NCBI GenBank assembly: GCA_021204375.1
Contig: JAJPZL010000213.1
Coordinates: 1 to 15,059, forward strand
Direction of reading: 5' to 3'
Origin: Bacteroides sp.
GTDB lineage: Bacteria > Bacteroidota > Bacteroidia > Bacteroidales > Bacteroidaceae
Length of the DNA: 15,059 bases
Shown: positions 633-14,058 of the stretch, in pieces
How the letters are laid out: every line of letters starts with the position of its first letter
Numbering within the stretch: position 1 is the stretch's first letter
Notes under the pieces: generated by a model
The model's database searches: none
What the model was told of the DNA's origin: nothing
Seen by the model: only the letters and a program-made list of their open reading frames with translations
Made by a program: the position numbers and the translations under genes

Positions 633-3248
633 TTACTTTTCTGTTCCAAACTCAGTCTGCTGACGCTCTACCTCGATCAGCATCTGGTTCTTCTCCTCTT
701 CAGAAAGGATCACTTTGGGTGCACCCGCTCCGGAAGTAACACCGGCACTACCCTGAACTGCATTCCGCTCTTCGAGGTAACACATAGCAAATTCAGCCGG
801 AACTGATTCAAACTCAATCTCAGCGGGTGTCGGAGCCAGTGTACCCTCAAACTGTACACGAGCCGTCACTTTGATCTTACCCGGTGTTTGAGTCGAACGG
901 ATCAGCACCGGAGCCGAACCAAACTCTACGGCACGGGGATTAGCGTTGATCGAAGCATCCCCGATGATCTCTCCCTCACCCTCTACCGTAAATACAATAT
1001 TCTCTTTCGCCAGACGGCGTACATTCCCACTATCATCCGTTACCTCAGCCACTACGATCAGAAAGTCGGACCCATCGGCAATAAGTGCCTGCCCCTGATG
1101 GTCGATAGAGAGTTGCAAACGAGTAGAACGGCGCGAAGGCATCTTCCGGTGGGTACATACCACCTCACCGTTTATAATCCCCTCTGCTACCAGATTCACC
1201 TTTTCCCAGTTCTTCTGGAAATAACTATAATCACGGGCTTCCCAGAAGTCCCATACCTGTTCAAAAACAACCGGAGCATTGGGCATATGTCCCGGAGCGT
1301 GCATCACCGGTTTAGTCCAGCTTTTGGTACCGTCGTACATCGAAAGCCGTACCGAATCGCAATTACTGAACACAATTACCTCCGCATCCGAGAAAGGAGA
1401 CATTTCATGAGTAATATAAACCATCGGTCCCGATTCAGCCAACGGATGATCCAGATCGGCAGCCGTCTGCGAACGGAACATATAGTAAGCATATTTCGGC
1501 TGGCGGAACGCATCGTAAATCCCTCCCCAATAGGGATCGGGATGGTATCCGCGCTGATGGTCGAACGGATGCCACTGCGCCCCTCCGATAAACTGCCCGT
1601 TGGTCCGGTAAAGTTCGTCGTAACTCTTAGCCAGCGACATAGCCTGTACCAGCAACGAACGTTCGCCCCAGCTACGGCTGGCACGGTTGTTATTGTTATG
1701 AGCATACCAGTCGTCTACATTCTCCCCGAATTCCCGGGTAAAGATCACCCGGTCGGCTATATCCTTTTCATCGTCTCCCGGCCAGCCATATACTACGTCG
1801 TAGTTATCTTTCACCCCGTCCGAATGTACATCGGCAGCAGCGGCCGGACGTCCCGGATAGGGAAATTCATCTTTTGTGATCTGCAAAGCCTCTAGCGAAA
1901 ACTCCAGCGGGAAACGGGTTTCATTCAGGATCGGTTCCCACATCAGTACCGACGGATGATTACGGTCCCGGCGGATCATCTCTCTTGTATTTTTATGCAC
2001 CAGTTCGACAAAGTGAGGCTCTTTGTTCCAGAACTGCCAGCCCGGAGTAGCCACAATTACAAACATACCCAGTTCGTCGCAGGCGTCCATAAAGGCAGGA
2101 TCCATCGGATAGTGAGCCACACGAATGATCCGGCACCCTGCATCCCTTAGCTTTTTTGCATCCCTCCATTGCTGTGAGTTGGGCATAGCATTGCCCACAT
2201 AGGCAAAATCCTGATGGCGGTTAGCCCCTATCAGTTGCCCGAAAGGCTTACCGTTGAGCCAGAAGCCCTCCTTATCCCGGAACTCAGCCAGGCGAATACC
2301 CGCCCGGGTAACCCCTCCGTCAATGGTTCTGTTATCCTCTTTGATACGGGATTCCACCCGGTATAAATAGGGACTATCCGGTTCCCACAACTTCGGGTTC
2401 TTCACCGTAAAGGTATGATACACCGTCTGGTCTTCGCCCAGCTTCAAAGTGACACGGCTCGAAGTACGTTTTACTACTTTACCATCTTTTTCCGTCAGTG
2501 CCGTCTCTACAGTTACCGTACGGGTAGTAGTTCCTTCATTCTTTACCTCAGTATTTACATACACCTCCGCACTCTTTTCACTGATCTTATCGTAGTGTAC
2601 AAACACCCCCCCTCCGGCTACCTTATCCGCCTCTACCGCATCGGTAATAGATACCGGAGACTTTACGATCATCCATACATCCCGGTAAATACCCCCGTGA
2701 TAAGTAAAATCGAGTGTATACTGACGCTTGCCGGGAGGATACTCCCGGTCGTCGCTGTTATCAGTCAGCACAGCGATCAGGCACGAATCTCCCGCCTGCA
2801 CTCCGGCCTCCGTAAGGTTCACATTAAAAGGCAGGTATCCTCCGATATGCTCCTGTACTTTCCGGCCGTTGATATAAATATCCTGTTTTCCCATAGCCGC
2901 TTCGAAATGCAGGATCACCTGTTTACCCTGTGCAGATGCCGGAACCACAAACCATTTGCGGTACCACGCCGGACCCTGATAGTTACGGGTACCACTCGCC
3001 TCCGCCGGCATCAGTTCCACCGTATGAGGTGTAGAAACCACCTCCCAGGCGGAATCATCAAAATTCACTTCGTGACCCCCCGGCAGGTCGCCTTTGAAGT
3101 AGCGCCATCCCGGATTAAAGCTGTAAATATCCCGTCCGCTGTCAGGAAGCGGGAAGAAACCCGCCACTGAGATCTCAGGACGATAGTAACCGGCACTGGC
3201 CAGTACCGGAAAAAGGATCCATATCCAAAAAAGTAATCTGCTTTTCAT
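633..3248 (-). CDS. Glycoside hydrolase family 2 protein (beta-galactosidase/beta-glucuronidase type), exported
   Basis: An 871-residue exported glycosidase. Residues 1-19 form a signal peptide (hydrophobic core, then ASA/G). A jelly-roll sugar-binding domain follows (about 43-196, with the DIYINGRKV motif and FTYHGGIYRDVW), then an immunoglobulin-like domain (about 200-318) and the catalytic TIM barrel (about 325-600). The predicted acid/base is Glu443 in WEPILNE, the counterpart of the usual W-S-L-G-N-E. The predicted nucleophile is Glu506 in FTREFGE. Only 63 residues separate them, fewer than in LacZ. Residues 710-815 look like an added Ig/Big-type domain, and a polar tail ends the protein. 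GH2 enzymes are retaining exo-glycosidases; the variant WEPILNE motif does not let me name the sugar (beta-galactoside, glucuronide or mannoside are all possible). It is the last gene of the operon: its ATG lies 3 nt after the stop of the preceding gene, and a terminator follows 40 nt after its TAA. Confidence 0.92.
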   Translation of the reverse strand: MKSRLLFWIWILFPVLASAGYYRPEISVAGFFPLPDSGRDIYSFNPGWRYFKGDLPGGHEVNFDDSAWEVVSTPHTVELMPAEASGTRNYQGPAWYRKWFVVPASAQGKQVILHFEAAMGKQDIYINGRKVQEHIGGYLPFNVNLTEAGVQAGDSCLIAVLTDNSDDREYPPGKRQYTLDFTYHGGIYRDVWMIVKSPVSITDAVEADKVAGGGVFVHYDKISEKSAEVYVNTEVKNEGTTTRTVTVETALTEKDGKVVKRTSSRVTLKLGEDQTVYHTFTVKNPKLWEPDSPYLYRVESRIKEDNRTIDGGVTRAGIRLAEFRDKEGFWLNGKPFGQLIGANRHQDFAYVGNAMPNSQQWRDAKKLRDAGCRIIRVAHYPMDPAFMDACDELGMFVIVATPGWQFWNKEPHFVELVHKNTREMIRRDRNHPSVLMWEPILNETRFPLEFSLEALQITKDEFPYPGRPAAAADVHSDGVKDNYDVVYGWPGDDEKDIADRVIFTREFGENVDDWYAHNNNNRASRSWGERSLLVQAMSLAKSYDELYRTNGQFIGGAQWHPFDHQRGYHPDPYWGGIYDAFRQPKYAYYMFRSQTAADLDHPLAESGPMVYITHEMSPFSDAEVIVFSNCDSVRLSMYDGTKSWTKPVMHAPGHMPNAPVVFEQVWDFWEARDYSYFQKNWEKVNLVAEGIINGEVVCTHRKMPSRRSTRLQLSIDHQGQALIADGSDFLIVVAEVTDDSGNVRRLAKENIVFTVEGEGEIIGDASINANPRAVEFGSAPVLIRSTQTPGKIKVTARVQFEGTLAPTPAEIEFESVPAEFAMCYLEERNAVQGSAGVTSGAGAPKVILSEEEKNQMLIEVERQQTEFGTEK

Positions 3249-3251
3249 CTT

Positions 3252-5495
3252 TTATCTCTTTATGTAGCTCGTATTCATTACAATATCTTTTCGGCGACTC
3301 TTCGGAAACACTTTCAGATCAATCACTTCTCCGTCCCTCAACTCTGCCTCTACCACCGTATTTCCCGGAGCATGCAGTTTAAAACGGATATCCTTATCCT
3401 GCGGCCAGGCCGGGAATAGTAATATCTCATCTCCGTTTGTCTGAAGAAGCATCTCCTGCAACCCGATCATACCACTACCACCCCAGTTATGGTCGGGTGT
3501 CCAGTCGTAACCCGGTCCCCAGAAGGCCGGGAAACGGTGTGGCCCATCCCCCAGTTTCAGGGAAGTCAGCCGATAGGCCTCTTCCGTCAATCCCAGGCAG
3601 GCAGCCCAGATATTATCCTGTTTCCATCCAATGTGGATACGGAACTCCAGGGCATCCGGATCATACAAATAAGTATTACGGGCAATCTCCAGATCAGGTC
3701 TTCCTACCCCATAAATGCGCCAGGGATAGACCGGATAAAGCTGCGGAGTCTCCACATTATTAATTCGCTCCCATGTTTTGGCAGGAGAGATCATGGTACG
3801 CCCTTCCAGCTCCCGCAGAGGAAGCGGAGGGATCTTAGTCAGCATCTCCGGCATCTGCCCGTAACTCTCCAGTACTACCCGCAGGGCCGCAATGGTACTG
3901 GATGCATTGTTGGTCATTTTATAGGTCTCGCAGGCAGAACCCGGAAAGAGGATCAGGTGCCCCTCCCCATCCAGTGACTTTCGTCCCCGGCGGGAAGCTA
4001 AGTATTCATAATGCTCCTCAAAAAAGCGGAGCGAACTCTCAATAAGCGGTATATAAGGAGTAATGTCATCCCCGTTATAAACGTTACGATCCAGGATCAT
4101 CTGGCAAAACTCCAGTACGGTATCCCACTCATACTCCAGCCAGGCATTATACTCCACCCCTTTATCAAAATAGTCGGGACGTTTAAATCCATATTCAGCC
4201 GGATTGGGCAAACCGAAGTTCTCTATCTGTTCTCCGAAACAGGCACCTCCGTGTCCCCAGTATACTTCACTACGTAGTTCAGTATTCCCCAGCATCTGGT
4301 TGTAAAACTCAAACTGGGCATCCATCATATCAAAATCACCTGCTTTCAGCATCGGCCAGTAGACCAACCGCTGGTTCTGTGCAGTCATGGTACCCCCGCC
4401 CCATTTGCGGTAATCCGGCGTAAAGGCCTGCTTCTCATCCACAAAAACCGGATCAAAGGTAAACAGCCCTCCGTTAAACTTAGTCGGTACACTTCCGTAC
4501 GCATTGCATCCCAGCATATAACGGAACAGCATGTAGTTACGGGTTATCTCCGTACTCTCTCCGCTACCGATGATATAGCTACGGTTATGGAAAGCCTTCC
4601 ACCACTCCCGGCTCCGTTTTTTGTCAGCCGCAGATACAGCAGCCACCGTCCGGCGAAGTTCCTGTTCCCAAAGAGCCATATCCTCCGTCTGCTGCGTATG
4701 CAACGCTATCTTTATATGGTGATTGCGGGCAGGCTTTACACTCTCGTAACACCACGCCTTAAAATCAGTACCGGCATACTCTCCGTCCCGAGTTCCCCTA
4801 TACCGCAGGTTATCGCCCCAGAGCATTCCACCAAAAGTAAGATGGGCCAGCGGATTCATCATCCTCTCCTTTACCTCTTCCAGTCCCTGCTGTCTGACCG
4901 TCCAGTCAAAAATTGTCTCCTGCGGGTTACGGTGATAAAAAAGAATGCTCTTATCCCCAGGCTCTATCCCATCAGCAGCCGTCAAAGAGCCTTCGGGCGG
5001 TGCCCATTTCCAGGAGTTCTGCTGACCTTCCCCCTTCCGGATGAGACGATCCCGATAACGCCAGTTCTCATAAAAGACCTCTGCCTTTACAGCCTGTTTG
5101 CTTTTTACCTCCACATGGATAACCGGCTTGAATACATCCACCCACAACTCAATAGTACCTGCTGCGGTAGTGATCTCTATATGCCCCTCTTCCGGCTTCA
5201 GCTCCTGGCTGAATTCCGTATTACCATTAAAAAAGTCGGGTGTAAAGGCCATCCGTACACGCCCCTGTTTCAGTTGAGTATTATGGCGATCAAACGTACC
5301 ACTCCGGCTCATATAGAAAAAGAGTTCATCCCCCTCTACCCATACATTCAGGCCGATATCTCCTCCGCCACACGGCATAGACTCCGAAGAGTTACGACTC
5401 TGGCTCTCCCAGATAAGGTGAGCATGCTGCCCCCAAAGGAACAACATGCTCATCCATACCAACGCTAATAATGAAAAGATCTTTTTTACTACCAT
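3252..5495 (-). CDS. Exported DUF5703/GH95-like (alpha/alpha)6-barrel protein, putative glycosidase
   Basis: A 747-residue exported protein. Residues 1-22 form a signal peptide (MVVKK, then a hydrophobic core ending near WGQ). The mature N-terminus (HLIWESQSRNSSESMPCGGGDIGLNVWVEG) is the beta-sandwich entry typical of DUF5703 proteins, which are distantly related to GH95 alpha-L-fucosidases. Residues about 300-680 look like an (alpha/alpha)6 barrel rich in aromatic and acidic residues (YGSVPTKFNGGLFTFD near 333-348, WGGGTMTAQNQRLVYWPML near 365-383, GHGGACFGEQ near 414-423). The end (about 685-735) is a small beta domain like the GH95 C-terminus. No catalytic pair can be assigned from sequence alone. 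Position between an esterase and a GH2 enzyme, with 3-nt spacers on both sides, supports a role in glycan breakdown; an alpha-fucosidase-like activity is inference. No disruption is visible. Confidence 0.75.
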   Translation of the reverse strand: MVVKKIFSLLALVWMSMLFLWGQHAHLIWESQSRNSSESMPCGGGDIGLNVWVEGDELFFYMSRSGTFDRHNTQLKQGRVRMAFTPDFFNGNTEFSQELKPEEGHIEITTAAGTIELWVDVFKPVIHVEVKSKQAVKAEVFYENWRYRDRLIRKGEGQQNSWKWAPPEGSLTAADGIEPGDKSILFYHRNPQETIFDWTVRQQGLEEVKERMMNPLAHLTFGGMLWGDNLRYRGTRDGEYAGTDFKAWCYESVKPARNHHIKIALHTQQTEDMALWEQELRRTVAAVSAADKKRSREWWKAFHNRSYIIGSGESTEITRNYMLFRYMLGCNAYGSVPTKFNGGLFTFDPVFVDEKQAFTPDYRKWGGGTMTAQNQRLVYWPMLKAGDFDMMDAQFEFYNQMLGNTELRSEVYWGHGGACFGEQIENFGLPNPAEYGFKRPDYFDKGVEYNAWLEYEWDTVLEFCQMILDRNVYNGDDITPYIPLIESSLRFFEEHYEYLASRRGRKSLDGEGHLILFPGSACETYKMTNNASSTIAALRVVLESYGQMPEMLTKIPPLPLRELEGRTMISPAKTWERINNVETPQLYPVYPWRIYGVGRPDLEIARNTYLYDPDALEFRIHIGWKQDNIWAACLGLTEEAYRLTSLKLGDGPHRFPAFWGPGYDWTPDHNWGGSGMIGLQEMLLQTNGDEILLFPAWPQDKDIRFKLHAPGNTVVEAELRDGEVIDLKVFPKSRRKDIVMNTSYIKR

Positions 5496-5498
5496 ATA

Positions 5499-6923
5499 CT
5501 ACCAATTATCCGAGCGGAAGGAGGAGACAGGCAGGCCGTCGCCACCAAAAAGGTCGCATTTCACATAATTTTCAAAACCATACCGAACCGCTACCGGGTG
5601 AGGTACCTGTTCGCTCTTTACCTGGACCTTGTTCCGCACGATCCAGGCCTTGGCCGGATAAAAGACCCGGTCTTCCCCCGCTACCTGGAAAAGCTTCGAT
5701 TCAAAATCTTTAGCCGCTATCCACATCGGTGCCCGGTCAAAACTCACGATCACCGTATCATTCTGTACCTCCATAGAGTCATAAAAAGGACTATCTCACG
5801 AGATACCTTCCACCCCATACGTTTTGGAGAGTGCCAGCAATGCCAGTCTTTCACCGGCCGTACGTTTATCCGCCGGATGAATACAGGTTCTGTCCCCCGC
5901 ATCCAGTAGCACCGCCATTCCCGTATTCGGAACCCGATGCTCCACTTTCGCCTATGCCTCCCGCAGGTAGGCAGAATTGATCACCTCCTTACCAGGTTCG
6001 GTAATGATCCCGTAATCGTACGGAGCGATCTGGCAATAGTAAAAAGGAAAATCCCCCTGTCCCCATAGGTCTCTCTAACCCGTGATCAGGGTAGAGAACA
6101 TATCGGCATAACTATGGGCCCGGTTATAATTATCTTCGCCCTGGTATCAGATCACTCCCCGTATGGAGAGTCCGATAAAGGGACTCAGCATTCCATTGAA
6201 AAGCACCGTCGGCGTACGGTTCTTAGAGGTGATATCCTCCTCCCTCCTTGGGATCGACACCTCCGGAAAAGCTTTCAGCATATCCTTGTTCATCCACGCC
6301 TCGGCAGCCGAGCCACCCCAGGCAGCTACGATCAACCCCATCGGTGCCCCGGTACTCTCATTCACTAATTTCCCGAAATGATAAGCCGTAGCACTGAACT
6401 CCTTCACGGTCTCCGGTTTAGCCTCTTTCCACTCACCGGTTATATCTTCCTGCGGCAAAACAGTCGCTGTACGTTTGGCCGTAAAGAGACGGATAGCCGG
6501 ATTGCTGCTCCGCAATAGATCCATATTGGAACCGGCGATGGGTTGATTCTTATACCCCTTCATAGGCATCTCCATATTGCTCTGTCCCGAACAGAACTAC
6601 AGCTCACCGACCAGGATATTTTCCAGGCGGGTCACCTCCCCGTTATCCAGTGTGATCGTATAAGGACCCCCGGCCGGGGGTGTCCGGAAAGAGAGTTTCC
6701 ACTTTCCATCCTTTCCCGCAGGAGTACTATACTGAGCACCATCCCATCCGGTTATTACTTTTACTGTTTTTCCGGCAGTCGCCGTTCCCCACAAATTAGC
6801 CTGGGTCTGCTGTTGCATCACCATACCATCCGAGAAGAAAGCCGGTAGTTCTACCTTTGCATACAGGTTACTCAAAGCAGCCGCCACTAGGCAGGCCGCT
6901 ATCATTCGTTTCAGTTGGTTCAT
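5499..6923 (-). pseudogene. Sialate O-acetylesterase-like SGNH esterase, inactivated by five in-frame stops
   Basis: One reading frame of 475 codons runs from ATG (6923) to TAG (5499) without an indel and matches the whole length expected for a sialate O-acetylesterase-like protein. It starts with a signal peptide (MNQLKRMIAACLVAAALSNLYA) and a beta domain. The SGNH nucleophile motif GQSNMEMP (Ser115) and the catalytic His in IHPADK (His349) are both kept. Internal stops are TAG at codon 109 (6597-6599), TGA at 259 (6147-6149), TAG at 283 (6075-6077), TAG at 324 (5952-5954) and TGA at 376 (5796-5798). The first three replace Trp expected by the family (VGE-W-xCSGQSN, GxI-W-YQGE, LI-x-x-W-R) and the fourth replaces Gln (LREA-Q). 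Intact relatives remove acetyl groups from sugars (sialic acid or plant glycans). Spacers of 3 nt on both sides place it as the second gene of the operon. No function is expected from this copy. Confidence 0.9.
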
Positions 6924-6926
6924 CGT

Positions 6927-9900
6927 TTACTTTTCTATGGTAAAGCCTACAGGGCCTAACAGGCCGGCAGGTATTAGTTTATCCTCTTTCATGCGATATT
7001 TAGCATTGGTCCAGATCCCCTCAAACGGAGCCTTTCCCTGATCCGCCCCATTGAGCGCATTGGCCCAGGTATTGGTCACCTCGATCTCCAGCGTGTTGGT
7101 GCCTTTTTTCAGGGCAGTAGTCACATCGGCCCGGTAGGGAGCCGTCCATACAATACCATAATCCACCCCGTTTACCCGTACGGTAGCCACATCGGCCACT
7201 TCACCCAGTTCCAGGTATACTCTATCTGCTTTTACATTTTTCCATTTGAAAGAAGTACAGTAAGTAGCGGTTCCGGAATAGTAACTGATGCGCTCCTCCG
7301 TCTCCTGACTCCAGTCAAAAAGTTCATTCCGGGTTATAACCGTATCAATAAGCGGGAAGTTCACCTTCCACTCTTTTACCTCTAAAGGAACCGAGGTTAT
7401 CTTCGGGGTTTTTACCGTAACAGCTTTTACATCCGTATCCTCTTCAAACACCACAAAAAGCGACTCTCCGCTACAGAGTTCCATCGGTACGATTGTCCGC
7501 CCCTTCTCCATGCGGTAAGAAACCTCCCGGCGAATCTCTCCTGTGACCGGATCCCAGTTCTCCGGCTTTTTACCTTCTATGCGGAAAGAGGCCTCTATAG
7601 TTCTCTTCTCTTCCAGTTGATTAGAGATAAAGTATACATCCGCTTCGGCTCCCCGGCGGTGTGTCCAGGCAATACCTGCCGGTACCACTACATCCAGCTC
7701 CAGGCCATAAGCCGAAAAATCATCCGCCGTAAAAGGAAGTTCCGGAATAACCACTCCCCCTCTTCTGAGCTCCTCGATCTTTGCCTGAGACTCTGCAGAA
7801 AGCGGCACATTATTCGGGTTCATCGGACGCTCGCCCGGAATAATCAACACTTTGTAAGAAGCACCTCCCGGTAATACTAACCGACCCTTCTCAACCTTTG
7901 CTAACCTGATCAATGCATCTTTATTGAAAGAGTCATACGCATATCCACGAAGCGGATTGACCCATTTATCCGGGTCGGCCATATTAGCCGTATGCCTCAC
8001 TCCCACAGGCTCTTCCCGGAGCGGCTGCCCTACATTGGCCAGACGCACCTGTTCAGCCTCTACCCGCTCCTTTCCGAAAATACCCGGCAAAAACGGGACC
8101 AGCCGTTCCGGAAGGATAGAACGACGCGGGATCTCCTCTCCCGTATATACCGCCATATCCACCACCGGTACACCATATTGCAAAAGCACCTGCGAACGGG
8201 TTACATAATCGGTAAAAGCCTTTCCTCCATCACTGAACCAGGTCTGGTCGCGCTGAAAAAAGAGGCCGATCCCATCCAGCGTCATACCCGGTTTCCGGTC
8301 TAGATAGGGGTTATGCGCATAGACATGATAAAAAAGCTTATTGATACCCAGTGCATAGTTACGATCCAGCAGGGTTTTGAACATCGCCGGATGTTCGTTC
8401 CATACCCCCCGTAATTCCGTAAATCCTTCAGCCTGGATCAGTCTCTTTCCATAAATATGAGCGCCGCTGATGGCATCCAGCATATCGTTGGGCTTATCGT
8501 GCGTAGGGCTTTTCAACCAATATTCCCCCATCGGGCGGTCTACCTTCTGGTGATGCAGCAAACCATCACTCACCATAGTCGGTGCCACACACTCAGCAGA
8601 GAATTCACAATCATACTCGCGGGCCGCAGTAGCCAGTACTTCATAAAATACATCCACGACCAACTCGGCAATGGTAGTACGTACATCCCTGAGTACCTCT
8701 TCAGAGCGTTCAACACTCTCTACAGGTATACCCGCCATTAGTGGCAACCATGGCCTCAGGTCGTAACCACGACGTTTGCGGAACTCCTCCGGAAAAGTTT
8801 TACTCCAGTTCTGGCTTCCACACTCCCAGCTATCAATGTGCAGATATTTAAGTACCCTGTGCGCCAGTACCGGATCGGTCTGGCTGAATACCGCTCCAAA
8901 CCAGTGATCAAACTGCTTCCTGACCGCAGCCGCACTGAATTTATCACACTCCAATCCCTTTCCGCCTCCGGCAGTCGCATTGGTGTGTCCGGTAGAGGTG
9001 TGTCCCATACGCAGGATCTTCCAGTATCCTTGGGGGAGCGTGGCAGTAAGCAGGTCTCCCTGCAATGAAGAGGTGAGGTCTACCATATCCCGCTGTTTCA
9101 CACAATCCTCCGTACCTATCTCGCCGGGAGTAGTATCATACGCCACCCTCCATACCAGGCCCGCTTTTCCCTCCCACGCATTCAGGCGGGGCTCACTATG
9201 CAGTAAAAGTCTATCTATCTTCAGGTTCGGCGACCATTTGGCAGCATCCAGGTCTTCACTGCCCGGTTCACTTCCGGCAGGATCCCAGTAAAAACGAAAA
9301 TAACGGGCAGTTGTCGGCGGAATGGCATGTGTAGAGTTCGCATCCGTATTCTGCCACCCCTGACGGGCCGGAACCAGCTGTTTAACCAACAGGAAGTTCT
9401 CCCCGTCATCGCTCGCCATCACCTTCAGGCGGTGTGACTGGTAGTTGTTCCCTTTCAGTACGATCTCTACATTGCGTGCCGTAAAAGGCCGTTCGTATTC
9501 AAATTGTATCCACGAGGGTACCGAAGAGCGGATCACACCGTTCTCATCCACCGTGATCACCCGTTTACCCTCTTCCACATCCTTCGGGTTTATATTCTCG
9601 TAAGTCATGGTATACACCGGAGTATCTACCGGTGCCGCTACCGGATAAGCCAGTAGCGCAATATCTTCATAATATCCTTCCACTGTTTCCGGACGGCTCA
9701 GCAGCAAGTCAGTGAGCTTTCCACCCGCTACAACCGTATCCGTAAATATCACCTTCTGCATAGACTCCTCCGGTGTGATCCAGGGACCACCCGCCAGTGC
9801 AAACCCATCGCAGATGTGCATCCCCAGTTGCAATCCCAGGCGGTCGGCCTCCTCCATGCTGTAACGCACCATCTCCCAGAACTCAGGAGTAAGTTGCTCT

Positions 9901-10169
9901 ACCGCTCCGGGAAACCCGTCTCCCTGCTGCGGAGAACGGATCGGCATCAGATAGGTACCACCCAACCCGGCCTCTTTCATCGCCTCCAGATCAGCCGTCA
10001 ACGCCGGTTTGGTTACCGCCCCGTACATCCAGTACCAAAAGCACCAGGGTTTAGCCTCCTCCTGTGGGGCCGCGAACTGCTCACGCAATGACTGCGCAGC
10101 AGTTTCGGGCCTGCACAAAGAGATAAACAATATGATTAAAAATGATATACGAATTCTTTGTTTGTTCAT
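6927..10169 (-). CDS. GH106-type alpha-L-rhamnosidase, exported
   Basis: A 1080-residue exported enzyme of the Glyco_hydro_106 family, which cleaves terminal alpha-L-rhamnose from glycans such as pectin. I chose the ATG at 10169 because it gives a normal signal peptide (MNKQRIRISFLIILFISLCR, cleavage near TAAQ/S). The frame stays open 56 codons further upstream, but that extension has no export signal and runs into the divergent promoter. Family hallmarks are the mature start AKPWCFWYWMYGAVTKPALTAD (39-60), LGLQLGMHICDGFALAGGPW (111-130), HIDSWECGSQNW (444-455), FSAEC (523-527), GEYW (548-551) and AEGFTELRG (580-588). Glu449 and Glu581 are the likely catalytic pair: they lie 132 residues apart, as do the two catalytic glutamates I recall for the characterised GH106 enzyme BT0986. 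A GH2-like sugar-binding beta-sandwich ends the protein (about 960-1078). It is the first gene of the operon and is divergent from the lipoprotein gene. Confidence 0.9.
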   Translation of the reverse strand: MNKQRIRISFLIILFISLCRPETAAQSLREQFAAPQEEAKPWCFWYWMYGAVTKPALTADLEAMKEAGLGGTYLMPIRSPQQGDGFPGAVEQLTPEFWEMVRYSMEEADRLGLQLGMHICDGFALAGGPWITPEESMQKVIFTDTVVAGGKLTDLLLSRPETVEGYYEDIALLAYPVAAPVDTPVYTMTYENINPKDVEEGKRVITVDENGVIRSSVPSWIQFEYERPFTARNVEIVLKGNNYQSHRLKVMASDDGENFLLVKQLVPARQGWQNTDANSTHAIPPTTARYFRFYWDPAGSEPGSEDLDAAKWSPNLKIDRLLLHSEPRLNAWEGKAGLVWRVAYDTTPGEIGTEDCVKQRDMVDLTSSLQGDLLTATLPQGYWKILRMGHTSTGHTNATAGGGKGLECDKFSAAAVRKQFDHWFGAVFSQTDPVLAHRVLKYLHIDSWECGSQNWSKTFPEEFRKRRGYDLRPWLPLMAGIPVESVERSEEVLRDVRTTIAELVVDVFYEVLATAAREYDCEFSAECVAPTMVSDGLLHHQKVDRPMGEYWLKSPTHDKPNDMLDAISGAHIYGKRLIQAEGFTELRGVWNEHPAMFKTLLDRNYALGINKLFYHVYAHNPYLDRKPGMTLDGIGLFFQRDQTWFSDGGKAFTDYVTRSQVLLQYGVPVVDMAVYTGEEIPRRSILPERLVPFLPGIFGKERVEAEQVRLANVGQPLREEPVGVRHTANMADPDKWVNPLRGYAYDSFNKDALIRLAKVEKGRLVLPGGASYKVLIIPGERPMNPNNVPLSAESQAKIEELRRGGVVIPELPFTADDFSAYGLELDVVVPAGIAWTHRRGAEADVYFISNQLEEKRTIEASFRIEGKKPENWDPVTGEIRREVSYRMEKGRTIVPMELCSGESLFVVFEEDTDVKAVTVKTPKITSVPLEVKEWKVNFPLIDTVITRNELFDWSQETEERISYYSGTATYCTSFKWKNVKADRVYLELGEVADVATVRVNGVDYGIVWTAPYRADVTTALKKGTNTLEIEVTNTWANALNGADQGKAPFEGIWTNAKYRMKEDKLIPAGLLGPVGFTIEK

Positions 10170-10246
10170 ACGAAAGGGTTTTATACTCAAAGACGGAAAA
10201 AAGCCCCTTTTGTACTCGCAGATATCCTTATTATATAAGCAGCCCC

Positions 10247-10254
10247 GAAAGATA
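10247..10254 (-). promoter_or_regulatory. Possible -7 box upstream of the glycosidase operon
   Basis: On the minus strand TATCTTTC differs by one base from the Bacteroidales -7 consensus TAnnTTTG and lies 77 nt upstream of the chosen GH106 start. No convincing -33 TTG accompanies it. It is the best candidate in the 189-nt divergent region (10170-10358), but weak. I see no other clear element there apart from the plus-strand promoter at 10327. Confidence 0.25.
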
Positions 10255-10326
10255 ACCGATCCCTTTACCGGCCTGTTTATCCGTAAAAATAGTTCCGGAA
10301 CAGCTCTCTTTTTTGTGAAATATGAA

Positions 10327-10334
10327 TATCTTTG
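10327..10334 (+). promoter_or_regulatory. Bacteroidales-type -7 promoter box of the lipoprotein gene
   Basis: TATCTTTG followed by CACCCC is an exact match to TAnnTTTG, 24 nt before the ATG at 10359, which predicts a leader of about 18 nt. No clear -33 TTG is visible at the usual 19-21 nt spacing. Confidence 0.7.
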
Positions 10335-10358
10335 CACCCCAACTAAACTCTCTTAACA

Positions 10359-11150
10359 ATGAAAAAACAAAGCTTACTTATCTGTGCCGCAGGCATTGTT
10401 CTCTCCTCGTGTTTATCCGGCAAAGCCATTCAAAAGGAGATCCGGGAATACCGCTCCAACCTTTTTTATGAACTCAGCACTCCCCTTTATCCGGATACCG
10501 CCCTCACCCGGGTTCACCTGAAGTTCATTGACTGTTCCAATATGGATTATTACACCGGCGTACGGGAAAAGGGAACGATCATACTTCTCCTGCTACTCTA
10601 TATGTACGACAAGCATCGCTTTAAGAGCAGGCTGGGAGAAGCGTCGGTTTACCCTACCTACAGGGAGTTCCTTACCGAAGCTTTACTGACAGAGTGCAAT
10701 AGCAGTACCTGCCTCCACTTAGTAGAAGAAGGGCAGACTCCTCCATCCGACCCATCCGCTTATACGATGGAAGTTAAAATCATAAACAACCAGACATACG
10801 CTATTACTACGACAGGTTCCCATTCGGTAATCTGGTTTGAATGGGAATACCTCACCTTTGAAAAACACCGGCTGAAACAGGTAGAGACAGACCTCTCCAT
10901 CCGGATCACTATAGCCCGGGGAGAAGAGACCCTCCACGATAAGGTGTACAGCCGGAAGTGGATGCAGTCCCTGTATGACCGGAACTATCCGGACAGGCAG
11001 AAATTAAACAGAATATGCGTAGAATATATGGCAGAGCCCCTCTCCCGGTGTACCAAAGAGCTGGTAGAGGATATTGCCACAGAGCTGCATCTGTTGTTTA
11101 CCGGTTTTATGTACAAAGAAAAATTGTACAAAGAAAGATCCCGGCTCTAA
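10359..11150 (+). CDS. Lipoprotein of unknown function
   Basis: A 263-residue predicted lipoprotein: MKKQSLLICAAGIVLSSC is a signal peptidase II leader with lipobox LSSC and acylated Cys18. I recognise no family. The mature part mixes charged helices and beta stretches. It has one short very hydrophobic run (IILLLLLYMY, about 74-83), probably buried rather than membrane-spanning, and only a few cysteines, so no metal-site pattern. A polar lysine-rich end (MYKEKLYKERSRL) is encoded by a near-duplicate DNA segment (TGTACAAAGA twice). It has its own promoter and is transcribed away from the glycosidase operon, so it is not part of it; a link to the operon is unsupported. Its TAA lies in the loop of the hairpin that terminates the opposite-strand fhs. 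Confidence 0.72.
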   Translation: MKKQSLLICAAGIVLSSCLSGKAIQKEIREYRSNLFYELSTPLYPDTALTRVHLKFIDCSNMDYYTGVREKGTIILLLLLYMYDKHRFKSRLGEASVYPTYREFLTEALLTECNSSTCLHLVEEGQTPPSDPSAYTMEVKIINNQTYAITTTGSHSVIWFEWEYLTFEKHRLKQVETDLSIRITIARGEETLHDKVYSRKWMQSLYDRNYPDRQKLNRICVEYMAEPLSRCTKELVEDIATELHLLFTGFMYKEKLYKERSRL

Positions 11151-11190
11151 AAGGCCGGGAAGCGAAGATAAAATAGGCTGTGTACAAAGA
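11110..11190. repeat. Three direct copies of TGTACAAAGA
   Basis: The decamer TGTACAAAGA occurs at 11110-11119, 11125-11134 and 11181-11190. The first two lie inside the lipoprotein reading frame, 15 nt apart. The third lies in the convergent intergenic space. They read as a small local duplication. Confidence 0.6.
11139..11160 (-). terminator. Terminator hairpin between the convergent lipoprotein and fhs genes
   Basis: TCCCGGC (11139-11145) pairs with GCCGGGA (11154-11160); a T.G pair extends the stem to 8 bp around the loop CTAAAA. On the minus strand the hairpin starts 38 nt after the fhs stop and is followed by TCTTTCTTTG, so it most likely ends fhs transcription. On the plus strand no T-run follows, though it could still slow polymerase at the end of the lipoprotein gene. 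Confidence 0.7.
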
Positions 11191-11198
11191 GGGACAAA

Positions 11199-12870
11199 TT
11201 AACTCAGTCCCTCGATCAACCCGTTTACCAGATCGATCCGCTCTGCCTGCGGGCTTTTGGGTAACCCGGGCATCCGCATAATATCCCCGGCAACAGCCAC
11301 GATCATTTCCGCTCCGTTATTGATCACCAGATCCTTGATATGTACTTTAAACCCTTCCGCACATCCGTAACATTTAGGATCGGTAGAGAACGAATACTGG
11401 GTCTTGGCAATACACGCCGGATAATGGCCGATACCCATCTCCCGGATCAATTTCAGCTTCTTCCGGGCCGCCATGCTATAGGTAACCTCCGCAGCTCCAT
11501 ACAATTTGCAGGCTACCGCAGCTATCTTTTCCGGAATTGGATCTTCATCCCTGTAGGTAAATGTCAAGGGTCCGGAAGGCTGGCGTTCTATAAACTCCGC
11601 CACCGTTTCGGCAAGCGACACAGCCCCCTCTCCCCCATCAGTGAAAGCACTGTTCACGGCAAACCCGGATCCTACCTGCCGGCAGAACTCCTCTACCAGA
11701 GCAATCTCCTCCTCCGTATCCGAAGCATACTTATTAAAAGCCACCACCACACGCTGTCCGAAAGCGTTCATATTATCCAGGTGCTTCTGCAAATTCTTCA
11801 ATCCCTTTACCAGGCTCTCCTTATCCGGCCGGGTAATATTTTCCAGCTCTGCCACTCCATGTATTTTCAGGGCCTGCGCCGTAGCGACGATCACCGTTAG
11901 GCAAGGCTGGATCCCGGCCTTCCGGCACTTGATATTAAAGAACTTCTCCGCTCCCAGGTCGGCACCAAAACCAGCCTCCGTCACGACATAATCAGCAAAG
12001 GTCATGGCCATTTTAGTAGCCAGGATAGAGTTACATCCATGCGCAATATTGGCAAAAGGCCCTCCGTGTACAATGGCCAGAGTATTCTCGGTCGTCTGCA
12101 CCAGGTTGGGATGCACGGCATTCTTCAGCAACACCGTAATAGCCCCGGCCACTCCCAGGTCTTTCACCGTGAAGGGTTGCCCCTCATAGGTAAATCCCAG
12201 CAGGATATTCTCAATACGGCGGCGCAGATCCTCCAAATCCTTAGCCAGGCACAGGATAGCCATAATTTCAGAAGCAGGAGTAATGTCAAAACCCGATTCA
12301 CGGGGAATACCGTTGCTCCTTCCCCCCAGTCCCGTCACTACATTCCGCAGGGAACGGTCGTTCACATCCAGTACCCGTTTCCAGAGTACCTCCCTCAGCC
12401 CAAAACCGGAAGCCTGATTCTGGTAAAGATAATTATCCAGCAAAGCCGTGATCATGTTGTGGGCCGAAGTGACGGCATGAAAATCTCCCGTAAAATGGAG
12501 GTTGATATCCTCCATCGGAAGTACCTGGGCATATCCTCCGCCGGCTGCTCCCTCCCCCCTTCATCCCGAAACAGGGGCCCAGAGAGGGTTCCCGCAAGGC
12601 TACCATAACCTTTTTACCAATCCGGTTCAACCCCAGTGCCAGCCCGATGGAGACAGTTGTCTTCCCGATCCCGGCTTTGGTCGGGGTAATGGCAGTAACC
12701 AGGATCAGGTTACTCTTTTTTATCCGTTCCGGGTCTATTAAAGAAACAGGCACTTTGGCAATGTACCTTCCGTAGTTTTGTATCTCCTCTACCGAAATTT
12801 CGCTATCGGCAGCAATCTGTTTGATCCTCTTTAGTTTAATACTTCTGGCTATCTCAATATCACTCTTCAT
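11199..12870 (-). pseudogene. fhs: Formate-tetrahydrofolate ligase, frameshifted by a 4-nt duplication
   Basis: Fhs makes 10-formyltetrahydrofolate from formate, ATP and tetrahydrofolate in cytoplasmic one-carbon metabolism. Residues 1-106 read from the ATG at 12870 and include the nucleotide-binding loop [11 protein letters not shown] (62-72) and [14 protein letters not shown] (93-106). The frame is then lost. The remainder, beginning AAGGGYAQV and continuing [20 protein letters not shown], reads in another frame to the TAA at 11199. The cause is a tandem TCCC (GGGA on the coding strand) at 12549-12556. Removing one copy restores 555 residues, the usual family length, with perfect motif continuity. 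No other disruption is seen. The gene is monocistronic, with its own promoter and terminator. As written it cannot give a full protein, but a recent mutation or a base-calling error in a C-rich run are both possible. Confidence 0.92.
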
Positions 12871-13042: not shown

Positions 13043-13069
13043 ATACCAGATATATTTTTAATACTTTTG
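13039..13069 (+). promoter_or_regulatory. Promoter of the acyltransferase gene (-33 TTG, -7 TACTTTTG)
   Basis: TTG at 13039-13041 and TACTTTTG at 13062-13069 are separated by 20 nt, the spacing of Bacteroidales sigma-ABfr promoters. The -7 box ends only 6 nt before the ATG at 13076, so transcription would begin at or next to the start codon. The -33 TTG lies inside the palindrome. Confidence 0.55.
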
Positions 13070-13075
13070 CAGAAT

Positions 13076-14058
13076 ATGCCTATTAAGCTAACAACATACA
13101 ACCAGAGCAGAAAAATACCGGATCTTCCGGGAAATAATATATTTCACTCCACCTACCTGTTTCAGATCTATGAAGCAACCCCCAACTATACCCCTCTTTT
13201 GCTGGTAGCTACCCTGGAGGATAAACCCATTGCCAAAATGCTGGCAGTGATCCGGAAAGCCAAACGTACCTTCCCCCCTTCCATCATCAAACAGTGCGAA
13301 GTGTACGATACGGGAGAGTTCCTGGACGAGACCATCGACAAAGAAGTAGTATTCGGGGAGATGCTGGAACACCTCACCGCTAAAGCCACCCGCGAATCCT
13401 TCCTGATCGAGTTCAAGAACCTGGAGAATGCACTCTTTGGTTACAAATACTTTCGCCAGAACAACTACTTTCCAGTCAACTGGCTGCGGGTAAGGAACTC
13501 GCTTCACACCAGTGAGACCATCGAAGAGCGGTGCAGCCCCTCCCGGCTCAGGCAAATAAAAAAGGACTCCTGAACGGAGCTGTGGTAGAGGAGGCATGCG
13601 ACGAAAAAGATATCCTGGAGTTCTCCCGGATGCTGCATAAAAAATACTCTTCCCGCATCCGGAAGCACTTTCCCAACATTGCTTTTTTCGAGCACATAAA
13701 GAATCATTTAGTACTCAGGAACCAGGGAAAGATATTTGTGGTACGTTACAACGATAAGATCATCGGAGGCTCAGCCTGCGTCTACTCCGGAGACACCGTA
13801 TATCTCTGGTTCTCAGGAGGAATGACCAAAACCTACCTCACCCAGTACCCCGGTGTACTGGCCGTCTGGAAAGCCCTGACAGATGCCAAAGAGAACGGTT
13901 TCTGCCACCTGGAATTCATGGACATAGGTCTCCCCTTCAAACGCCACGGATACCGGGAGTTCGTACTCCGTTTCGGCGGCAAGCAACTCAGCACCCGCCG
14001 CTGGTTCCGTTTTCGGTGGAGCCTGGTCAACCGCATTCTGGTAAAAATATATTCTTAA
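13076..14058 (+). pseudogene. GNAT/FemAB-like acyltransferase, interrupted by a -1 frameshift at A AAA AAG
   Basis: The reconstructed 327-residue protein resembles the FemAB-like / BioF2-like GNAT group, which transfers acyl or aminoacyl groups to cell-surface precursors; the substrate is unknown. Residues 1-163 read in one frame (MPIKLTTYNQS to QIKK) and meet a TGA at 13571. The rest reads in the -1 frame from GLLNGAVVEE to the TAA at 14056-14058 and holds the typical C-terminal fold: IFVVRYNDKIIGGSACVY, then YLWFSGGMTKTYLTQYPGVL and HLEFMDIG. Codons ATA AAA AAG at 13556-13564 form the slippery heptamer A AAA AAG (13558-13564), and slipping back one base joins the two halves exactly. Equally, one A lost from an A7 run explains it. 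The ATG at 13076 is preferred: an upstream TTG (13067) lies in the promoter box. The gene is divergent from fhs, with no cotranscribed neighbour. Confidence 0.78.

What the first reader, a model, noticed from the sequence alone, without database searches (positions are those of the whole stretch)
5499..6923. Full-length esterase with five nonsense codons and no indel
Decaying bacterial genes usually gather frameshifts and deletions. Here all 475 codons stay in one frame, the catalytic Ser115 and His349 survive, and the only visible damage is five stops (TAG, TGA, TAG, TAG, TGA). Four replace residues the family conserves (Trp, Trp, Trp, Gln), and each needs one C:G to T:A transition (TGG to TAG/TGA, CAG to TAG). 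That points to recent decay under transition-biased mutation, deamination damage, or a mutator, rather than old relic DNA. Normal TAA, TAG and TGA stops in neighbouring genes argue against a changed genetic code.
Basis: partly seen in the sequence, partly recalled or inferred. Interest (0 to 1): 0.72.

Follow-up and report, generated by a model that had tools for sequence, protein, structure and literature searches.

The report
Broken esterase in a decaying Bacteroides
A sugar-trimming enzyme gene of an uncultured Bacteroides-like bacterium carries five recent stop mutations, and it is one of many genes that look broken across that genome, which makes the wider decay more interesting than the single gene.

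Summary
The sister genome and six syntenic orthologues carry Trp, Trp, Trp, Gln and Gly at the stop columns. It is best read as a recent pseudogene; a changed code does not fit. The 'C:G to T:A' argument from these five stops alone is nearly circular, since every transition that creates a stop is C:G to T:A. The wider result: this Bacteroides-like assembly carries in-frame stops inside coding sequence at 17.4 per 100 kb, against 0, 0.4 and 0.8 in three control sets. In seven contig pairs against its sister, 32 nonsense changes lie on this genome's side, all at G:C pairs, 26 by transition. The sister has its own breaks, with one nonsense codon each in mutS and mutL. Best reading: gene decay under relaxed selection and AT-biased mutation. 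Artefact remains a rival: a third MAG with a similar accession prefix is also broken, while 0 of 78 genes in 15 other records are. The esterase's stop-to-missense ratio is higher than neutral decay predicts.

The parts
5499..6923 (-). SASA-family carbohydrate esterase pseudogene, 475 codons, five internal stops, no frameshift
6597..6599 (-). internal TAG, codon 109; relatives carry Trp
6147..6149 (-). internal TGA, codon 259; relatives carry Trp
6075..6077 (-). internal TAG, codon 283; relatives carry Trp
5952..5954 (-). internal TAG, codon 324; relatives carry Gln
5796..5798 (-). internal TGA, codon 376; relatives carry Gly
6927..10337 (-). GH106 alpha-L-rhamnosidase, intact here, broken in the sister
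3252..5495 (-). DUF5703 protein, intact here, broken in the sister (indel and one nonsense codon)
633..3248 (-). GH2 glycosidase, intact here, frameshifted in the sister
11199..12870 (-). formate-tetrahydrofolate ligase split over two frames (12433-12870 and 11199-12515); split over three in the sister, one break at the same G-rich tract
13067..14058 (+). GNAT/FemAB-like acetyltransferase in two frames here, with a 1-base length difference in an A run near 13558; one 327-codon frame in the sister

Best explanation
The stretch is a recent pseudogene of a carbohydrate esterase, one of many genes decaying in an uncultured Bacteroides-like lineage. Shown: five in-frame stops at conserved columns; a genome-wide excess of in-frame stops in the contigs sampled; independent breaks in the sister genome, including one nonsense codon each in mutS and mutL; an excess of missense and nonsense C:G to T:A changes without a synonymous excess. 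Inferred: the lineage came under relaxed or inefficient purifying selection (for example host restriction with small populations); AT-biased mutation supplied mostly C:G to T:A and some G to T changes; accessory genes such as glycan-degrading clusters gathered stops and 1-base indels while conserved genes were kept. Loss of mismatch repair may have helped; in the window's own genome this is unknown. That the esterase gives no full-length product is inferred.
For: Stops at W, W, W, Q, G columns, conserved in the sister and 6 of 6 outgroups. Stops with in-frame coding on both sides and no ATG within 15 codons: 55 in 316 kb here (none of them in the window), 4 in 115 kb of the sister, 10 in 1200 kb of relative G170, 0 in 289 kb of isolates, 1 in 266 kb of other MAGs; where a sister alignment exists 16 of 18 such hits here are nonsense against a sense codon, and the scan finds 16 of the 32 known. 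Stop types TAG:TGA:TAA 29:14:12, near the neutral 0.53/0.28/0.19. tblastn with 876 G170 proteins, end-proximal stops ignored: 7 of 38 genes broken here, 2 of 73 in isolates, 2 of 58 in other MAGs (both in MO.1_1); here 4 of 10, 3 of 14 and 0 of 14 with rising identity. 32 nonsense here against 5 in the sister in seven contig pairs. Missense C:G to T:A, this genome to sister, 233:144 in units with stops and 254:186 without; synonymous 494:596 and 643:637. Frameshifting indels 0.58 per kb coding, 4.3 per kb non-coding. Three tRNA-ligase genes uninterrupted as far as their contigs reach. Sister mutS and mutL each with one stop.
Against: The esterase has many stops for its missense: 5 nonsense, 17 missense, 29 synonymous on this lineage, where neutral decay predicts about 1 nonsense per 20 missense (0.1 to 0.6 stops expected). 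Contigs L179, L184, L180 and L193 were picked for their stops, so the rate of 32 is inflated. In the sister, 4 of 10 genes are broken but all four lie at the window's locus and 0 of 6 elsewhere. Missense C:G to T:A also leans to this genome in units without stops. Host and sample are unknown. MutS and mutL could not be read here. MO.1_1, not a sister, is also broken in 2 of 5 genes at the locus, which could mean a batch effect.
Confidence: 0.72

Rival explanations
1. Assembly or DNA-damage artefact: low-coverage consensus errors (cytosine deamination, guanine oxidation, homopolymer indels) made false stops and frameshifts in this MAG and in others of the same batch.
For: All 32 nonsense changes are at G:C pairs and all 6 transversions are G to T, two classic damage types (recalled). 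Of 18 records checked at this locus only the window, C.2_15 and MO.1_1 are broken, 7 of 13 genes, against 0 of 78 genes in the other 15 (stops in the first 45 and last 15 residues were ignored). 30 of 34 frameshifting indels in coding DNA are one base.
Against: Errors do not avoid silent sites: missense C:G to T:A is in excess by 157 over 50 units but synonymous is not. Five stops by random C:G to T:A error imply about 86 such errors in the window (from 0.058 nonsense per change); polarised counts over four genes are 77 here and 74 in the sister lineage. Indels are about 7 times rarer in coding than non-coding DNA. About 27 kb of conserved genes (11 genes of L149, five units of L193, three tRNA ligases) hold no stop; one search took 26 kb and expected 4.5, p 0.011.
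Confidence: 0.19
2. Programmed read-through or a changed code: stops are decoded, so the esterase is still made.
For: The esterase keeps a low missense rate in spite of five stops, and 24 of 32 stops in the paired contigs stand at Trp or Gln columns.
Against: One codon stands for different residues (TAG for W, Q and E; TGA for W, G and R). Composition fits neutral nonsense. The three long neighbours have no internal stop in about 2,750 codons. No suppressor anticodon among the tRNAs found, though only 15 tRNA matches were found. Frameshifts accompany the stops.
Confidence: 0.04
3. Isolated pseudogene in an otherwise ordinary genome.
For: The three adjoining genes of the cluster are intact here.
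Against: Excess of in-frame stops in the contigs sampled and two further broken genes in the window.
Confidence: 0.05

Closest known systems
Gene decay in a recent symbiont, SOPE (PMC3914690; search listing, start of abstract and four passages seen)
   Same: Many genes broken by premature stops and frameshifting indels
   Different: [quoted passage not shown] here mutS and mutL carry stops in the sister, only point changes and small indels were looked at, no host is known, and the organism is Bacteroides-like
Mismatch-repair-deficient mutator bacteria (recalled)
   Same: Transitions and 1-base indels; mutS and mutL broken in the sister
   Different: No synonymous C:G to T:A excess in this genome relative to the sister; nonsense changes confined to G:C pairs, some G to T; repair genes not found in this assembly
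SASA-family sialate O-acetylesterases (PF03629; PDB 9h4u, 9ega, 7kmm matched by sequence with an intact orthologue)
   Same: Family and Ser/His motifs; sits in a glycosidase gene cluster
   Different: Five internal stops

Membership tests
SASA carbohydrate esterase (PF03629) | Profile match above the gathering score | tested here: met
   46.8 bits with X at stops (cut-off 24.8); two intact orthologues 62.5 and 60.0
SASA carbohydrate esterase (PF03629) | Ser in GQSN and His in IHP | tested here: met
   S115 and H349 present; their catalytic roles are recalled
SASA carbohydrate esterase (PF03629) | Uninterrupted reading frame | tested here: not met
   five internal stops
Genome in early decay | Many broken genes compared with relatives | tested here: met
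   7 of 38 against 2 of 73 in isolates and 2 of 58 in other MAGs (9, 5 and 8 before end-proximal stops were set aside); 17.4 against 0 to 0.8 in-frame stops per 100 kb
Genome in early decay | Core genes spared | tested here: met
   three PF00133 tRNA-ligase genes uninterrupted as far as contigs reach; 11 of 11 matched genes of contig L149 intact; a small sample
Genome in early decay | Host-restricted life | not testable with these tools
   no sample data for either MAG
Mismatch-repair mutator | mutS or mutL inactivated | tested here: inconclusive
   met in the sister; neither gene nor the sister's mutS locus found in this 79% complete assembly
Mismatch-repair mutator | Raised mutation rate at silent sites | tested here: inconclusive
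   no synonymous C:G to T:A excess here against the sister, but the sister may be a mutator too

The most novel reading that the evidence does not exclude
A Bacteroides lineage is caught at the start of genome erosion: two sister species with assemblies still of 3.3 and 4.0 Mb break accessory genes independently by point nonsense and 1-base indels, after mismatch repair was lost, as a step towards dependence on a host.
Probability: 0.4. Interest if true: 0.65.

Novelty: new member of a known kind. Interest (0 to 1): 0.42.

Why it matters
If real, it is an early stage of genome decay in Bacteroides, a genus best known (recalled) for large glycan-foraging genomes, with a close sister decaying independently. 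That would let the order of events be tested: repair loss first or gene loss first, which genes go, and how fast. If it is an artefact, it warns that some public MAGs carry false stops that look like biology.

Tried and rejected
Changed code or suppression: rejected as main reading (one codon for several residues; no suppressor anticodon among 15 tRNA matches; intact long neighbours). Uniform deamination damage: rejected on synonymous counts. Nonsense over missense: strong in the esterase. At contig level 26 transition nonsense stand against 157 excess C:G to T:A missense, for which the 0.058:0.602 ratio predicts about 15, so much of the excess may come from picking stop-rich genes and contigs; for the esterase it is left open. 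One search counts differing sites, not codons, so its nonsense figures (29 and 10 for transitions) differ from the 32 and 5 codons. The first codon scan with a fixed score threshold was replaced by one scaled to the model. The first breakage count (9 of 38, 4 of 10, 5 of 73, 8 of 58) held stops near protein ends that look like over-long query starts (the intact window GH2 was among them); one search sets aside stops in the first 45 and last 15 residues. Literature: eight searches, listings only, save passages of PMC3914690. Searches returned no paper; none of the 10 of 94 papers shown holds the term 'Bacteroides species'; the 6 papers were not opened; the source study of C.2_15 was not found. 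Absence in print is weakly tested. mutS, mutL and the sister's mutS locus were not found in this assembly: with 79% completeness this is no evidence of loss.

Full report
Observation. The esterase lies on the minus strand, 6923 to 5499. It has 475 codons with the terminal stop and five internal stops at codons 109, 259, 283, 324 and 376. Ser115 and His349 are present. With X at the stops it matches PF03629 at 46.8 bits, against 62.5 and 60.0 for two intact orthologues. It aligns in a single frame to six intact syntenic orthologues.

Relatives. The window is contig C477 of a 3.30 Mb, 506-contig assembly, 79% complete. Of 158 genomes of its genus searched, its own included, the closest is G118, which holds a 13.5 kb syntenic stretch at 92.8% identity. 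The same sequence is held as JAJQBG010000427.1, MAG 'Bacteroides sp. isolate C.2_15' (L035). The other contigs paired with G118 match it at 90 to 95%. The sister's esterase carries W, W, W, Q, G at the five columns but is itself frameshifted twice. Six of six syntenic outgroup orthologues carry the same residues.

What the five stops say by themselves. In the standard code every transition that makes a stop is C:G to T:A, so 'each needs one C:G to T:A transition' carries little information. Given the sister's codons and kappa 4 to 10 (about 5 from 535 transitions and 208 transversions), 4 or more of 5 stops by transition has p 0.31 to 0.69, and 3 or more of 5 at Trp 0.24 to 0.44.

Genome-wide. 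A codon-usage scan for stops with in-frame coding on both sides and no ATG within 15 codons gave 55 in 316 kb of this genome (24 sequences, the window among them but giving none), 4 in 115 kb of the sister (8 sequences), 10 in 1200 kb of the single-contig relative G170, 0 in 289 kb of 13 isolate loci and 1 in 266 kb of 12 other MAG loci (0.6 setting). The isolate and MAG loci lie around one gene cluster, so G170 is the fairer control. Where a sister alignment exists, 16 of 18 hits were nonsense against a sense codon; the other two were not confirmed, and the scan caught 16 of the 32 nonsense codons known there. The 55 are TAG 29, TGA 14, TAA 12, close to the neutral 0.53/0.28/0.19.

With 876 G170 proteins as queries and end-proximal stops ignored, 7 of 38 matched genes were broken here, 2 of 73 in isolates (both frameshifts in L056), 2 of 58 in other MAGs (both in MO.1_1), and 4 of 10 in the sister, all four at the window's locus and 0 of 6 elsewhere. 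Before that filter the counts were 9, 5, 8 and 4. By identity to G170, 4 of 10, 3 of 14 and 0 of 14 genes were broken here at 50-65, 65-75 and 75% or more. Three PF00133 tRNA-ligase genes (IleS, LeuS and MetS by size, recalled) are uninterrupted as far as their contigs reach; one runs off its contig.

Paired with the sister. Seven contig pairs, 58.7 kb of coding and 4.2 kb of non-coding sequence, carry 32 nonsense codons on this genome's side and 5 on the sister's. Sister residues at the 32 are 12 Trp, 12 Gln, 4 Gly, 2 Glu, 2 Arg; 26 arise by transition (one by two steps) and 6 by transversion, all six G to T. At kappa 5, 26 of 32 by transition has p 0.001 and 32 of 32 at G:C pairs p 2e-4; at kappa 10, 0.10 and 0.006. 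Four of the contigs were chosen for their stops, so the rate is inflated, though the spectrum should not be. The 32 stops fall on 17 of 50 units, with 21.6 expected if spread evenly (p 0.02; overall dispersion p 0.06). Frameshifting indels in coding DNA number 34 against 3 in-frame ones, and they are about 7 times rarer per kb than in non-coding DNA.

Selection or damage. Missense C:G to T:A differences lean to this genome: 233 to 144 in the 17 units with a stop, 254 to 186 in the 33 without; synonymous ones do not (494 to 596, 643 to 637). Random damage, or a raised mutation rate in this genome alone, would add silent changes too. In the window, polarised C:G to T:A counts over four genes are 77 here and 74 in the sister lineage, while five stops by random C:G to T:A error would bring about 86. 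Relaxed purifying selection fits best.

Repair genes. The sister has a full-length mutS match with one TAA at a Gln column (residue 231 of the G170 protein) and a mutL match with one TAG, aligned to Gln in one reference and His in the other. The truncated first parts keep MutS domain I and most of II, and the MutL ATPase region. G170 and G077 have matches without stops. In the window's genome neither gene, nor the sister's mutS locus, was found; at 79% completeness its repair state stays unknown.

Against this reading. First, the esterase: on this lineage 29 synonymous, 17 missense and 5 nonsense changes. If the missense excess dates the loss, only 0.1 to 0.6 stops are expected; even if all 22 non-synonymous changes were neutral, five stops have p 0.003 to 0.004. 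The gene was picked because it has stops, which softens this but may not remove it. Second, of 18 records checked at this locus, breakage is confined to the window (1 of 4 genes), C.2_15 (4 of 4) and MO.1_1 (2 of 5); 0 of 78 genes in 15 other records are broken. C.2_15 and MO.1_1 share accession letters and are not sisters, so a batch artefact or a shared habitat is possible.

Literature. SOPE, described as a nascent symbiont, is the nearest case seen (PMC3914690; start of abstract and four passages); a minimal mismatch-repair set is said to appear intact there. The listings of eight searches of the open-access library showed no report of such decay in Bacteroides, which is a weak test.

Verdict. 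The gene is an ordinary recent pseudogene. The wider decay in two sister Bacteroides-like genomes, with mutS and mutL hit in one, is what deserves follow-up, after the reads have been checked.

Noticed in passing
11199-12870 (-): Formate-tetrahydrofolate ligase is frameshifted in the window and, at the same G-rich tract but with a different length, in the sister: a possible slippage hotspot.
   Followed up: partly
13067-14058 (+): Acetyltransferase in two frames, with a 1-base difference in an A run; one frame in the sister.
   Followed up: partly
L297:53-2665 and L303:1489-3351: mutS and mutL of the sister MAG each carry a single nonsense codon.
   Followed up: yes
L037:4821-8029 and 9998-12163: A third MAG (MO.1_1), not a sister, has broken GH106 and DUF5703 genes at the same locus.
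   Followed up: partly
L179, L184, L193, window: All six transversion-made stops found in the paired contigs of this genome are G to T on the coding strand.
   Followed up: partly
L184:4182-9925 (-): Genes that look like an efflux pump carry several stops; two of the four units have a strongly one-sided missense C:G to T:A excess in this genome (16:3 and 14:1).
   Followed up: no
L056:5378-8541 and 8562-9985: Two of the isolate control genes (Phocaeicola sartorii record) also score as frameshifted.
   Followed up: no
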